Of a DNA stretch of 64,000 nt, positions 1,443 through 8,327 are shown in pieces. This stretch comes from Colwellia sp. Arc7-635 (GTDB taxonomy: Bacteria > Pseudomonadota > Gammaproteobacteria > Enterobacterales > Alteromonadaceae): NCBI RefSeq assembly GCF_003971255.1, contig NZ_CP034660.1, positions 3,472,001 to 3,536,000 on the forward strand, in the 5' to 3' direction. Positions within the stretch are counted from its first letter, which is position 1. Each line of letters opens with the position of its first letter. The translations under genes were made by a program, and so were the position numbers. The notes beneath the pieces are model-generated. The model saw only the letters and a program-made list of their open reading frames with translations, ran no database searches and had not been told where the DNA came from.

Positions 1443-4079
1443 TTAGCTCAACTTATCGGTTAACCAGTTTTGTGCCGCTTTTAAAGCCGCTTCAATGTTT
1501 TCTGGCTTACTACCACCGGCTTGTGCCATGTCAGGACGACCACCACCTTTACCGCCAACTTCTTGTGCTGCAACATTGACTAATTCACCAGATTTTACGC
1601 GGCCAATAAGATCTTTAGTTACGCCAGCAATTAAGCTCACTTTGTCATCGCTTGCGGTTGCCAATAAAATGATGCCTGAGCCCATTCTATTTTTTAAGTC
1701 ATCAACCATACCGCGAAGTGATTTAGCTTCTACGCCTTCTAAATTAGCAATAAGCGCTTTTACACCATTGAACTCGATAGTTTGGCTAAGTAAATCTGCA
1801 CCCGCTTGACTTGCTACTTGCTGCTTATATTGTGCTAGTTCTTTTTCTAATTCTTTATTACGCAACAATACTTGTTCTACTTTGCTAGTAACATTAACCG
1901 GATCAGCTTTAACTAAAGCGGCAATATTACTTAACGTTTGTTCTTGTGCTTCAAAGTAGTTTAGTGCGCCTTCACCTGTTACGGCTTCTATACGACGAAC
2001 ACCAGCAGCAATACCTGACTCTGAGACTATTTTGAATAGGCCAATATCACCAGTGCGGTCAACATGAACACCACCACAAAGTTCGGTAGAAAATCCGCCT
2101 AAAGTAACAACACGTACTTCATCGTCATACTTTTCCCCAAACAAGGCCATAGCGCCTTTTTCTTTCGCTTCATCAATTTGCATTAAATTGGTTTCACGGG
2201 CTAAATTACAGCGAATCTGTTCATTGACCATACGCTCGATAGTCGTTAACTCTTCACGTGTAACGCCTTCAAAATGAGAAAAATCAAAACGTAATTTTTC
2301 AGCATCACATAACGAACCTTTCTGTGTAACATGCTCACCCAACACTTTACGAAGTGTCGCGTGTAAAATATGTGTTGCAGTGTGGTTCTTAACAATTGCA
2401 GCACGACGTTCGATGTTAATTTCGGCTTTAACACGACGGTTTAACCCGATAGTGTTATGAGCAATACCTCGGTGTGCAAACGCGTGACCTAATTTAAAGG
2501 TATCTGTTACTTCAAAAACGCCATCATCAAGGTGTAGCATACCGCTATCACCTACTTGTCCACCTGACTCAGCATAGAACGGAGTTTTATCTAGTACGAC
2601 AATACCGGCTTCGCCTGCTTTTAATTCAGCAACGGTTGCTTCGTTATTAAAAAGCTCAACAACGGTAGAAGACATGTCATTGCGGGTATAACCTTTAAAT
2701 TCAGTGCGATGCTCTGATTTAATAGTGTCATTGTAGTCAGTACCAAACTGGCTAGCTTTTTGCGCACGAATACGTTGTTGCGCCATGGCTGCATTAAAAC
2801 CATCATGATCAATGCTTAAATGACGTTCACGAGCAATATCTGCCGTTAAATCAGCAGGGAAACCATAAGTGTCATAAAGTTTGAAAACATCATCACCGGC
2901 AATAGTGTCACCTTTAAGGTTTGACAATATATCTTCTAGTAGTGTCATGCCTCGATCGAGTGTTCGACCGAACTGCTCTTCTTCGATACGGAGAATTTTT
3001 TCAATAATCGCCTGTTGCTGAATAAGCTCTGGGTAAGCTTGACCCATTTGTTGTGCAAGTGACGCGACAATTTTATGAAAGAAAAATGATTTAGCTTCTA
3101 ATTTATGACCGTGACGAATGGCACGGCGAATAATACGGCGTAAAACATAGCCACGACCTTCATTTGATGGCATGACACCATCAGTGATCAAAAAGCTACA
3201 TGAGCGAATATGATCGGCAATAACGCGCAATGATTTATGTGCTAAATCGTCACACTCAAGTAATTTTGCCGTGTCACGAATTAAGCCTTGGAAAATATCA
3301 ATTTCATAGTTGCTATGCACACCTTGCATAATGGCGGAAATTCGCTCTAAGCCCATACCCGTATCAACTGACGGTTTAGGTAAGTTTTCCATCGTACCAT
3401 CAGCGTGACGGTTATATTGCATGAAAACTAAATTCCAAATTTCGATAAAACGATCGCCGTCTTCATCTGCAGAGCCCGGAGGTCCACCAAAAATATCTTC
3501 GCCGTGATCATAAAAAATTTCAGAACAAGGGCCACATGGACCTGTATCACCCATCGACCAAAAGTTATCAGACTCATATTTTTTATCTGCTGACTTGTCG
3601 CCAATGCGAATAATTTTCTCTGCTGGCACACCAATATTAGTTAACCAGTAGTTATAAGCTTCATCATCGCTTTCATAAACTGTGACGAGTAATTTTTCTT
3701 TCGGTAATGCTAATACTGAGGTTAAAAATTCCCAAGCATAGTTAATAGCTTCTTCTTTAAAATAATCGCCAAAACTAAAGTTGCCGAGCATTTCGAAAAA
3801 AGTATGGTGACGCGCGGTATAACCGACATTTTCTAAATCATTATGTTTACCACCGGCACGAACACAGCGCTGGGCTGACGTAGCTCGAGTATAACTGCGA
3901 GTATCATCACCAAGAAATACATCTTTAAATGGCACCATACCCGCATTAGTGAATAACAATGTCGCATCGTTACCAGGAACAAGAGAACTACTCGCAACAA
4001 TTTGGTGCTGCTTAGAAGCATAAAAATCTAAAAATGCCTGACGCAATTGGGCACTAGTTTCAATCATTTGAATTTCCAA
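1443..4079 (-). CDS. alaS: Alanine--tRNA ligase
   Basis: 878 residues, full length for bacterial AlaRS, which charges tRNA-Ala in the cytoplasm. The N-terminal class II catalytic domain begins with the typical [24 protein letters not shown] segment in the first 35 residues and carries FKDVFLGD and WNLVFMQ. The middle editing domain has the zinc-binding HTATHILHA motif and its partner [15 protein letters not shown]. The C-terminal part ends in a glycine-rich C-Ala domain ([15 protein letters not shown]). It lies directly upstream of csrA and downstream of a decayed recX, preserving the recX-alaS-csrA order of many gammaproteobacteria. A terminator follows. Confidence 0.98.
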
Positions 4080-4101: not shown

Positions 4102-4335
4102 TTAAGCGTTTAATAGTGTCATGATTTCATCTGATGAGAAACCACCTTGTCGCATAAAGCGCAGTCTTTCTGCTTTATTTTTTGATCTTTTATTAGGGAC
4201 GCACCAAAGCGCTTATTATACGCAAGCTCTGCTTGAAGATACCAATGTATTTGATGCTTTATTAGCAATTTATTGCTGATTTATTAATGATTTTTGTACA
4301 AATTCATCACTAACGTCCATTTCGACTAACGGACA
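4102..4335 (-). pseudogene. recX: Decayed recX (regulatory protein RecX), 3' part
   Basis: Just upstream of alaS, where recX normally lies, the minus strand still reads like the RecX C-terminus, but in pieces. One frame gives VSDEFVQKSLIN, another IHWYLQAELAYNKRFGAS and KDQK, and a third AERLRFMRQGGFSSDEIM followed by TLLNA and a stop at 4102. The RFG and F-x-x-x-GF features of RecX are visible. At least two shifts separate the pieces; one fits loss of an A in a run of six A's. The N-terminal two thirds are not recognisable. RecX normally restrains RecA. Confidence 0.75.
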
Positions 4336-4762: not shown

Positions 4763-7700
4763 ATGAAGGAACAAATCAAAAACATGCGTTTAATGTTGGT
4801 TATTTTGTTTAGCTCACTATTATTACAAGCATGTGGTGGTTCGAGTGAAAGTACTCCAACATATACCATTAATTCATCTGTTTCATCGGTGGCATTTACC
4901 AATGAAATTCTACAAGAAGAAACCCATACAATTTCAGTAAATGTGACTTTTGACGGTAATGGTTTATTACTCGGCTTTGCTCCTACATCAACCCCAGTAG
5001 GTTGGTTAAGCTACCGTACAGAGAATGTCACTAGCACATCTGCAACCATACACATTGATGTTGCTAATGCGAACTTATTAGCCGCTAACCTTTATGGCAC
5101 AACCTTAAGATTGTCCAGTGGTGATACAGCAACAACAAACCTTGCTCATACCGACATTAATGTCTCATTACTCGTTTGGGATGCTTTAACTTTTGATGAT
5201 ACCTTCGGTGTTGAAAACATATCTGCAAAAACAATTGATATTAGCTCTAGCGCTGACAACTTAACTTTAGCCTCATCAGTGCCTTGGCTAACGCTTGAAA
5301 AAAGCTTTATTGATGGCGTAACAACTATAGTGGCAACACCTGATGTTAGCGACTTTACTCAGTCAGGCCTTTATAGCGCCACTATCGACATTACTAGCCC
5401 GTTAGACACCACACAATATCCTGTAGAATTAAGTTTAGATAACCTGTATTTATTTGCTGACAGAGCCAGTGTAGCTTTGGTTGAAACTGCGAATATCAGC
5501 AATACTGAAACCACACTTAATATTAACTCTAATAGTTTACAAACTTGGGGCTGGCAAGCCACGACCCAAGCAAACTGGTTGTCATTAGCAGTCGACACTG
5601 ACACGAACCAATTAACGATCACAGCAGATAGCAGTGCTTTAACAGATAACGCAACGGCCCTAGCTGAAATCACAATTAGTGGTGACGAACAAACCACAGC
5701 AATAGCAGAAACTATTCAGGTCAGCTTTTATAAATCAAGTGCACTGAGCGAAAGTCAAACTTTAGATATTGTGGCTAATAGCAATGGTGTGGTCACGAAC
5801 CCTTTACTACCCCAGTATTATGTGGCCACAGCCAATGAGCTGCGCAGCTATCATTTGTATACTAACGAATTATTATCAACAACGGTCATCGCACCAACAG
5901 ATACTGTATTGGAGCAACTGATTATTCATCCTGACGCCAGCATCATGCTAGCTAAAGCGGATGAAATAACGGTCATAGATGAAAGTACCAGTGAAACAAC
6001 AACGCACCGCTATCAAATTAATTTAGCAGATATGAGCGTTACAGCGCTATCCGAGATAGAAACCATTAACGAGCCAGTTAAATTCATCCGACTTGATGGC
6101 CGTTACTTTCTTACCACGTCTGCACTAGAGTTTGCTGATAAAAATCTGAAAAGATTGGGCTTTAATAGTGACTCATCCTTTATTGCTCGCACCTTTAATG
6201 TTGCAGAGCAAAACCAAAGCATATTTGCCTTAGATGTCAGCACAAGTTCAGAGCTTATGTCGATAAAGCGCCTTATTGCCAAAGTAAATGATTTTGGTCG
6301 CAACCCTATCAATACTGAAATTAGTCACAGTTACCGCCCTGAATTATTAGGTGAAAACCAACAAATAGCTGATTTTTATGTTACCGCCGATGAAAGTAAC
6401 ATTTATACCATTAGCCCTACCAGTGAATGGATCAGCTTTGACGGCACAACATTCACTGACAATGGCCTATTAAATACTGATGAAGCGATTACTAATTTAG
6501 CCTTAGCTCATAGCACTAATGATCGCCCTCATTATGCGAGGTTTGAAGCTAGCGTAGGTTTTAAAGTTGACGTATACAACAACCAACAAGTGATCACTAA
6601 CAGCATCCCATTAAATCTAAATCAACCTAATCAACTGCTCATTAGTCATGACGATAGCCGAGCAGTATTAACATCGGCTGACGCGATTGATGTTGTCAGC
6701 TTAAGTCAGTTTAGTAGCTCTGCACAAAGCTTAGCGTTTACGACTAGTTTTGGTGACAGTGCTATAACACAACAAACCCTAACCTTGTCGAATGTTGGTG
6801 CTGGTTGGCAAGCAACGGCTAGCGCACCTTGGTTAGTACTAACACCAAAAAGCGATGAAAATGGCGATAGCTTGTCAATCGATATCGACCGCAGTTTAAT
6901 TACCGGTTGGGGCTTAATGACCGCCAATATTTCGATATACGATCCAGCCAGTGGCACCACGAAAGTGATCACCATCGAACTAGCAATTGATGCAATTAGA
7001 TTAAGCAGCAACTACCCGTCATTAGCTTTTAATAGCTTAGCTACCGAGCAGACACTCGAACATAGCGTTGATATTTTAACGAACAGCGAAAGTAATATCA
7101 CTTGGCAAGCAACTACCGATGCTAACTGGTTATCGTTATCAAGTGATAATGTTAATAACACATTAACTATCACTGGCATACCTGCAAACATTGCTACTGA
7201 CGGTGTCCATAATGCCGTTATTACTTTATCGCCAACAACAGCGGGTACGGCTTTATCAGGCACGATAAACATCACTTTTAATAAAGGTGTGACTGATGCC
7301 ACAGACGTTGATATTACGAATATTAACGTTAACAGCTCGGGGGTTGTGCTTGATGTAATGCGTCCATACGTTTATATCGCTAGCGGTGATAAAATCAATA
7401 CTTATCATGTTGTCTCTGGCGCTTTAGTCAACTCCACGACCTCACCATTAGTTGACGTTGACCTGACAAACTTAGTTGTTCACCCTGATGGTTCAATGCT
7501 ACTAGCATCGAATAGTGAAAGTTATTTAGATGCTGATAATGTCGAGCAAACACGTGTGAATCATTATCAATTTAACCTAAGCACTTATCAGTTTAGTCAG
7601 ATAGATAGCGAGAATATCACCATAGAATTCCGCCCAATCATGATAAAAATTATTGCCGGTGCACCAGTGGTTATCACGCAAACACTCGAATATGCAGACC

Positions 7701-8251
7701 TAAACTTAGTTCGTCAGTATTGGGATCAAGAAAATGCATATTTTACTTCAACCATTGCACAAGCCAACAGTGCTGACCTATTTATGGCTTACAAAGAAGC
7801 AACAACCTCGCTCGAACGCTACGCATTGAGCTATAACGCCTACGCCAGTGAGATGATCTCAGTAGAAAACCAACCCGCCTATATTAATACTGCTTTTAGC
7901 AGTTCATTTAGCTTTGCCCTAAACAATAACGGCACCGCTATTTATACCGCTAACAACACTAGCGAATGGGCAGGTTTTGATGGAGCTACTTACACAGATA
8001 ACGGTCTACTTCAAGCTAATGCTAATGTTAGAACTTTTAACGCCACAACAGATACTGATGACAACAGCTATTTTTATCGTTTTGATCCAACATTAGGCAT
8101 CACCTACAGTAAATACAGCCCTGCTCAAGTTGAGCTTTGGTCAGAAGTTATTACAAATGCTACCGCTCAAAGTTACTTACTGCCGGCTTATCAACGCGTA
8201 TTGATTTATGACACTGATACCTCAACGTTAAAATTACGCTCTCATCAGTAA
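4763..8251 (+). CDS. Large lipoprotein with duplicated BACON-like and propeller-like halves
   Basis: 1162 residues. The N-terminus has a signal peptide ending LLLQAC, with the lipid-modified cysteine at residue 24 followed by GGSSES, so the protein is predicted to be a lipoprotein. It is rich in Ser, Thr, Asn and beta strands. Three related modules carry a W-Q-A-T-x-x-x-x-W-L core near residues 263, 682 and 781, resembling the BACON fold. The region near 338-600 is repeated near 857-1110: NSNGVV versus NSSGVV, and SEWISFDGTTFTDNGLL near 554 versus SEWAGFDGATYTDNGLL near 1067. This suggests two copies of a sandwich-plus-propeller unit. The start at 4763 has an AGGGA ribosome site. It stands alone and ends at a strong terminator. 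Function unknown; a surface binding role is only inference. Confidence 0.85.
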   Translation: MKEQIKNMRLMLVILFSSLLLQACGGSSESTPTYTINSSVSSVAFTNEILQEETHTISVNVTFDGNGLLLGFAPTSTPVGWLSYRTENVTSTSATIHIDVANANLLAANLYGTTLRLSSGDTATTNLAHTDINVSLLVWDALTFDDTFGVENISAKTIDISSSADNLTLASSVPWLTLEKSFIDGVTTIVATPDVSDFTQSGLYSATIDITSPLDTTQYPVELSLDNLYLFADRASVALVETANISNTETTLNINSNSLQTWGWQATTQANWLSLAVDTDTNQLTITADSSALTDNATALAEITISGDEQTTAIAETIQVSFYKSSALSESQTLDIVANSNGVVTNPLLPQYYVATANELRSYHLYTNELLSTTVIAPTDTVLEQLIIHPDASIMLAKADEITVIDESTSETTTHRYQINLADMSVTALSEIETINEPVKFIRLDGRYFLTTSALEFADKNLKRLGFNSDSSFIARTFNVAEQNQSIFALDVSTSSELMSIKRLIAKVNDFGRNPINTEISHSYRPELLGENQQIADFYVTADESNIYTISPTSEWISFDGTTFTDNGLLNTDEAITNLALAHSTNDRPHYARFEASVGFKVDVYNNQQVITNSIPLNLNQPNQLLISHDDSRAVLTSADAIDVVSLSQFSSSAQSLAFTTSFGDSAITQQTLTLSNVGAGWQATASAPWLVLTPKSDENGDSLSIDIDRSLITGWGLMTANISIYDPASGTTKVITIELAIDAIRLSSNYPSLAFNSLATEQTLEHSVDILTNSESNITWQATTDANWLSLSSDNVNNTLTITGIPANIATDGVHNAVITLSPTTAGTALSGTINITFNKGVTDATDVDITNINVNSSGVVLDVMRPYVYIASGDKINTYHVVSGALVNSTTSPLVDVDLTNLVVHPDGSMLLASNSESYLDADNVEQTRVNHYQFNLSTYQFSQIDSENITIEFRPIMIKIIAGAPVVITQTLEYADLNLVRQYWDQENAYFTSTIAQANSADLFMAYKEATTSLERYALSYNAYASEMISVENQPAYINTAFSSSFSFALNNNGTAIYTANNTSEWAGFDGATYTDNGLLQANANVRTFNATTDTDDNSYFYRFDPTLGITYSKYSPAQVELWSEVITNATAQSYLLPAYQRVLIYDTDTSTLKLRSHQ

Positions 8252-8299: not shown

Positions 8300-8327
8300 A
8301 AAAAACCGCAGCAATGCGGTTTTTTTA
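8300..8327 (+). terminator. Terminator after the large lipoprotein gene
   Basis: Stem aaaaaccgca/tgcggttttt with loop gcaa followed by T's, about 50 bp beyond the stop codon at 8251. Confidence 0.9.

What the first reader, a model, noticed from the sequence alone, without database searches (positions are those of the whole stretch)
4763..8251. Internally duplicated 1162-residue lipoprotein without recognised family
The protein repeats a BACON-like sandwich module and a propeller-like region about 515 residues apart (for example SEWISFDG versus SEWAGFDG, each followed by a TDNGLL). It is isolated between terminators and carries a lipobox. The combination looks like a surface adhesion or ligand-binding scaffold that arose by tandem duplication.
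Basis: partly seen in the sequence, partly recalled or inferred. Interest (0 to 1): 0.6.

Follow-up and report, generated by a model that had tools for sequence, protein, structure and literature searches.

The report
Doubled BACON-propeller lipoprotein in Colwelliaceae
A marine cold-water bacterium carries a large membrane-anchored protein built from immunoglobulin-like spacer domains and a propeller-like domain, with most of the protein duplicated once; it belongs to an uncharacterised but conserved family whose second copy has been lost or recombined away several times, which makes it a tidy but fairly ordinary example of protein evolution.

Summary
The ORF at 4763-8251 (+) is intact (1162 aa), has a lipobox (LLQAC24; Cys24 invariant in 33 relatives), and residues 141-610 repeat at 656-1122 (29% identity, 203 bits, E=2e-62). 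The architecture is signal/Cys, then sandwich B0, then [sandwich-sandwich-propeller-like] twice. The protein itself has no Pfam or NCBIfam match, but 30 of 33 family members match BACON_2 (best 6e-11). Weak propeller matches (lactonase, YncE, WD40, PQQ-repeat models) occur in relatives. AlphaFold of unit 1 gives three fairly confident sandwiches and a low-confidence propeller. The full-length model failed.

The gene is single-copy, in all 17 genomes of the genus, under purifying selection, and sits beside recX-alaS in most of the family. Relatives come in four forms: one unit, one unit plus a leftover sandwich, two units, and one chimera formed by deletion between the repeats. So the duplication is real and old, with repeated later loss.

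"Adhesin" is not shown: no neighbour, family hit or literature supports a ligand, and BACON domains often act as spacers. Best reading: an outer-membrane lipoprotein binding scaffold. New member of a known kind; modest interest.

The parts
4763..8251 (+). Whole gene: 1162-aa lipoprotein with architecture B0-[B-B-P]-[B-B-P]
4763..4834 (+). Signal peptide and lipobox LLQAC; lipidated Cys24, Gly at +2
   Evidence: sequence; Cys24 invariant in 33 relatives; only Cys in the window protein
4850..5182 (+). B0: N-terminal sandwich, residues 30-140, the most conserved domain, not duplicated
5183..5446 (+). B1: BACON-like sandwich of unit 1, residues 141-228
5447..5740 (+). B2: BACON-like sandwich of unit 1, residues 229-326
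5741..6706 (+). P1: propeller-like domain of unit 1, residues 327-648, about seven blade-like repeats by eye
   Evidence: propeller family matches in relatives; fold search; low-confidence model
6707..7003 (+). B3: copy of B1 in unit 2, residues 649-747
   Evidence: profile comparison B1-B3 E=1.7e-21
7004..7297 (+). B4: copy of B2 in unit 2, residues 748-845
   Evidence: profile comparison B2-B4 E=5e-25
7298..8248 (+). P2: copy of P1 in unit 2, residues 846-1162
   Evidence: profile comparison P1-P2 E=1e-56
8300..8325 (.). Terminator-like hairpin, A-rich on one side and T-rich on the other (bidirectional), between this gene and the convergent LysR-type gene
   Evidence: and sequence

Best explanation
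The protein is an outer-membrane lipoprotein scaffold. Shown: the signal peptide/lipobox, one unduplicated N-terminal sandwich (B0) and two copies of a unit made of two BACON-like sandwiches and a propeller-like domain. Inferred: after lipidation at Cys24 the protein is moved to the outer membrane (Gly at +2, no Asp retention signal); the sandwiches work as a stalk that holds the propeller-like domains away from the membrane; the propellers bind a protein or glycan partner; and the doubled form gives two binding heads on one anchor. The duplication probably arose once, and the second unit was then lost or trimmed several times, at least once by recombination between the repeats. So the second head is useful but dispensable.
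For: Internal repeat with E=2e-62 and matching domain-by-domain profile comparisons. BACON_2 in 30 of 33 relatives, BACON in 11; several pass the curated cut-off (L036, L045, L047, L048; L073, L075, L077). Propeller models (THOC3, Prp19 WD40, Lactonase, SGL, TIGR03866, YncE) match relatives at E about 1e-4 to 1e-2. Unit-1 model: sandwich pLDDT mostly 65-90. Structure search brings tandem Ig-like proteins and WD40 propellers. Strong purifying selection, dN/dS about 0.06-0.10, though dS is near saturation. Present in 17 of 17 genus genomes, single copy. P2 domains form one starred group and P1 plus most single-unit domains another. Chimeric deletion form L046 beside two-unit L021 of the same genus. 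Truncated forms keep the unit-2 sandwich B3.
Against: The propeller part of the model is poor (pLDDT 25-70, pTM 0.33), the full-length model failed (mean pLDDT 36.7), and the internal blade repeat was not significant. The window protein itself passes no family cut-off. No ligand, no partner gene and no surface evidence; the conserved neighbours (alaS, recX, dinB) are housekeeping genes.
Confidence: 0.55

Rival explanations
1. Periplasm-facing envelope scaffold, working like the propeller lipoprotein BamB or another assembly factor: it would bind an outer-membrane or peptidoglycan partner from inside rather than reach outward.
For: Most outer-membrane lipoproteins of Gammaproteobacteria face the periplasm (general knowledge); a lipoprotein with a propeller is the BamB plan; stable single-copy gene at a conserved chromosomal place.
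Against: BamB carries no BACON-like stalk; the family is missing from most genomes of the bacterial family (44 of 197 positive), so it is not core machinery; it diverges much faster than the neighbouring alaS.
Confidence: 0.25
2. Surface adhesin or glycan-binding protein.
For: BACON domains were first proposed as carbohydrate binders (PMC9853417); modular acidic lipoprotein that evolves quickly.
Against: No polysaccharide-utilisation genes seen among the conserved neighbours; BACON domains often act as spacers and one tested domain bound no substrate (PMC11216935, PMC9853417); surface display not testable here.
Confidence: 0.2
3. Enzyme of the lactonase/SMP-30 propeller type that acts on a sugar lactone or similar substrate, with the sandwiches as spacers.
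For: Weak Lactonase, SGL and YncE profile matches in relatives.
Against: None reaches the curated cut-off; WD40 and PQQ-repeat models match about as well, so they indicate the fold rather than the activity; P1 and P2 keep different invariant residues.
Confidence: 0.1

Closest known systems
BACON / BACON_2 domain proteins (PF13004, PF19190)
   Same: Ig-like sandwiches near the N-terminus of an exported lipoprotein, repeated in tandem and followed by a larger C-terminal domain; relatives pass the curated cut-off
   Different: The window protein itself scores below the cut-off; not next to a polysaccharide-utilisation locus; in Gammaproteobacteria rather than Bacteroidota; the whole stalk-plus-propeller unit is duplicated
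Lactonase / YncE-type seven-bladed propellers (PF10282, NF052280)
   Same: Weak profile matches in relatives; about seven blade-like segments by eye; exported
   Different: Far below curated cut-offs; joined to BACON-like sandwiches; duplicated; no catalytic residues identified
BamB, propeller lipoprotein of the outer-membrane assembly machine
   Same: Outer-membrane lipoprotein with a propeller (general knowledge)
   Different: No family match; extra sandwiches; patchy distribution; doubled

Membership tests
BACON / BACON_2 | Curated HMM cut-off passed | tested here: inconclusive
   Window protein: no match. Orthologues: 30 of 33 match BACON_2, several above 25 bits (L036 29.5, L047 27.0, L045 26.8)
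BACON / BACON_2 | Ig-like beta-sandwich fold | tested here: met
   Unit-1 model has sandwiches at about residues 36-138, 142-226 and 249-324, pLDDT mostly 65-90; structure search returns tandem Ig-like proteins
BACON / BACON_2 | Carbohydrate binding | not testable with these tools
   needs binding assays
BACON / BACON_2 | Neighbouring polysaccharide-utilisation genes (common, not obligatory) | tested here: not met
   conserved neighbours are recX, alaS and often dinB and a metallo-hydrolase; no dedicated SusC/SusD search was run
Seven-bladed beta-propeller (lactonase/YncE/WD40 type) | Curated HMM cut-off passed | tested here: not met
   only weak matches, in relatives
Seven-bladed beta-propeller (lactonase/YncE/WD40 type) | Propeller fold with counted blades | tested here: inconclusive
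   about 25 strands in residues 333-646 of a low-confidence model; WD40 propellers among structure hits at low TM-score; internal repeat score within the null range
Bacterial lipoprotein | Signal peptide with lipobox and invariant Cys | tested here: met
   LLQAC24; Cys24 invariant in 33 of 33
Outer-membrane sorted lipoprotein | No Asp at +2 | tested here: met
   Gly25, at least 90% conserved; the real location was not tested

The most novel reading that the evidence does not exclude
The two units act as a recombination cassette: deletion and exchange between the repeats keep making one-head, trimmed and chimeric versions, so the number and specificity of binding heads is tuned by recombination in natural populations.
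Probability: 0.12. Interest if true: 0.5.

Novelty: new member of a known kind. Interest (0 to 1): 0.3.

Why it matters
It defines an unannotated, conserved lipoprotein family of cold marine bacteria. With a two-unit protein and a chimeric deletion product in the same genus, it gives a clear natural series (one unit, two units, truncated, chimeric) for asking what a doubled binding head does. It does not overturn anything known.

Tried and rejected
Full-length AlphaFold with nine close homologues: uninformative (mean pLDDT 36.7). Sequence search against solved structures, with the single protein and with the family profile: no meaningful hit. Self-comparison of the propeller profile for blade repeats: best score 15.3 against a null mean of 13.1 (max 18.1), so not significant. 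Plasmid search: none. NCBIfam on the window protein: none. Literature on BACON plus Colwellia, or BACON plus Gammaproteobacteria plus propeller: none. Mobile element: rejected because the place beside recX-alaS is conserved in most carriers. Chance repeat or low-complexity artefact: rejected by shuffles. Rooting the duplication with distant outgroups: suggestive only (single-unit L047/L048/L051 near the base), with long branches and weak support.

Full report
Observation. The reading frame at 4763-8251 on the + strand is intact and encodes 1162 residues. Comparing the two halves gives one long alignment, residues 141-610 against 656-1122, 203 bits, E=2e-62, 29% identity. Shuffles leave no doubt for each pair: propeller-like segments z=39, second sandwiches z=15, first sandwiches z=9. 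The signal peptide ends in LLQAC24. Cys24 is invariant in 33 relatives and is the only cysteine of the protein.

Architecture. Domain profiles made from 26 two-unit proteins split the protein as B0 (30-140), B1 (141-228), B2 (229-326), P1 (327-648), B3 (649-747), B4 (748-845), P2 (846-1162). Profile comparison pairs B1 with B3 (E=1.7e-21), B2 with B4 (5e-25) and P1 with P2 (1e-56). B1 and B2 are more distant copies of each other (1e-9), while B0 shows no convincing sequence relation to the others. The duplicated unit is therefore sandwich-sandwich-propeller, and B0 stands alone at the N-terminus. B0 is the best conserved domain across genera (55% mean pairwise identity).

Family identity. The window protein has no Pfam or NCBIfam match worth the name. 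Its relatives do: BACON_2 in 30 of 33 (best 6e-11) and BACON in 11, several above the curated cut-off. For the P region, relatives give scattered weak matches to different propeller models: THOC3, Prp19 WD40, Lactonase, SGL, TIGR03866 and YncE. Together these suggest a propeller without naming a subfamily.

Structure. A model of unit 1 with 18 rows (both units of nine close orthologues) has three sandwiches at pLDDT mostly 65-90 and a poorly determined all-beta C-terminal part (pLDDT 25-70). The structure search returns tandem Ig-like proteins and WD40 propellers, with low TM-scores. The full-length model failed. A test for blade-like internal repeats did not beat its null. The sandwich claim is well supported and the propeller claim is likely but not proven.

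Distribution and context. The window lies in a Colwelliaceae genome. Named near relatives are Colwellia and Cognaticolwellia species. The gene is single-copy, present in 17 of 17 genomes of the genus and in 44 of 197 sampled genomes of the family (15 of 52 genera). More distant proteins with sandwiches plus a propeller-like region occur sparsely elsewhere in the phylum. In most carriers the gene lies next to recX-alaS, often with dinB and a metallo-hydrolase on the other side, so it is inherited in place and not mobile, and its neighbours give no functional clue. Purifying selection is strong (dN/dS about 0.06-0.10, with dS near saturation), but the protein changes much faster than AlaRS (76% against 98% identity for the closest pair).

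History of the duplication. Relatives come as one unit (650-675 aa), one unit plus a terminal sandwich (754-798 aa), or two units (1162-1193 aa). In the propeller tree all P2 domains and one single-unit protein form one group (support 97), and all P1 plus most single-unit domains another (support 98); the very divergent L051 falls outside both. This fits one duplication. The terminal sandwich of most truncated forms scores best as B3, the unit-2 copy (for example 76 against 32 bits in L030), so they look like two-unit genes that lost B4 and P2; L050 is too weak to call. L046 (668 aa) matches its same-genus relative L021 in unit 1 up to about residue 236 and in unit 2 from there on, which is what deletion by recombination between repeats would leave. 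On a tree of the adjacent alaS the architecture changes at least six times. An outgroup rooting places some single-unit forms near the base, but weakly.

Function. The best-supported mechanism is an outer-membrane lipoprotein with a sandwich stalk and propeller heads that bind a partner. The anchor and domain order are shown; outer-membrane sorting follows from the +2 rule; stalk and binding roles are inferred from domain type. Published work describes BACON domains as likely membrane-bound spacers, with 76% of BACON proteins predicted to be lipoproteins (PMC11216935), and reports one BACON domain that bound none of the substrates tested (PMC9853417). The step from BACON to adhesion is therefore not safe.

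Verdict. The protein is a new member of a known kind. Its interest lies mainly in the natural series of unit gain, loss and chimera.

Noticed in passing
window 4105-4316 (-): recX beside alaS is a broken remnant (two frames, N-terminal half missing) in the window; it is also fragmentary in ten other loci of the genus examined, intact in L007 and apparently in G769, and intact in other genera. The genome keeps another RecX-family frame at C1:1271158.
   Followed up: partly
window 1443-4079 and L008: alaS of the window and L008 is 98% identical at protein level (dS 0.30), while the adjacent lipoprotein gene is only 76% identical (dS about 2.4). This gap is much wider than for other pairs and suggests recombination of one of the two genes.
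   Followed up: partly
L046 (G040) against L021 (G080): Within one genus, a two-unit protein and a chimeric one-unit protein that joins B0-B1 of unit 1 to B4-P2 of unit 2.
   Followed up: yes
L052, L078: Distant relatives keep the N-terminal domain B0 with diverged sandwiches and propeller-like regions, so B0 may be the defining domain of a wider lipoprotein family.
   Followed up: no
L075, L076: Distant BACON-propeller relatives also match the thrombospondin-type-3 cohesion protein MtsC model in an added region (1.9e-9 and 1.3e-7).
   Followed up: no
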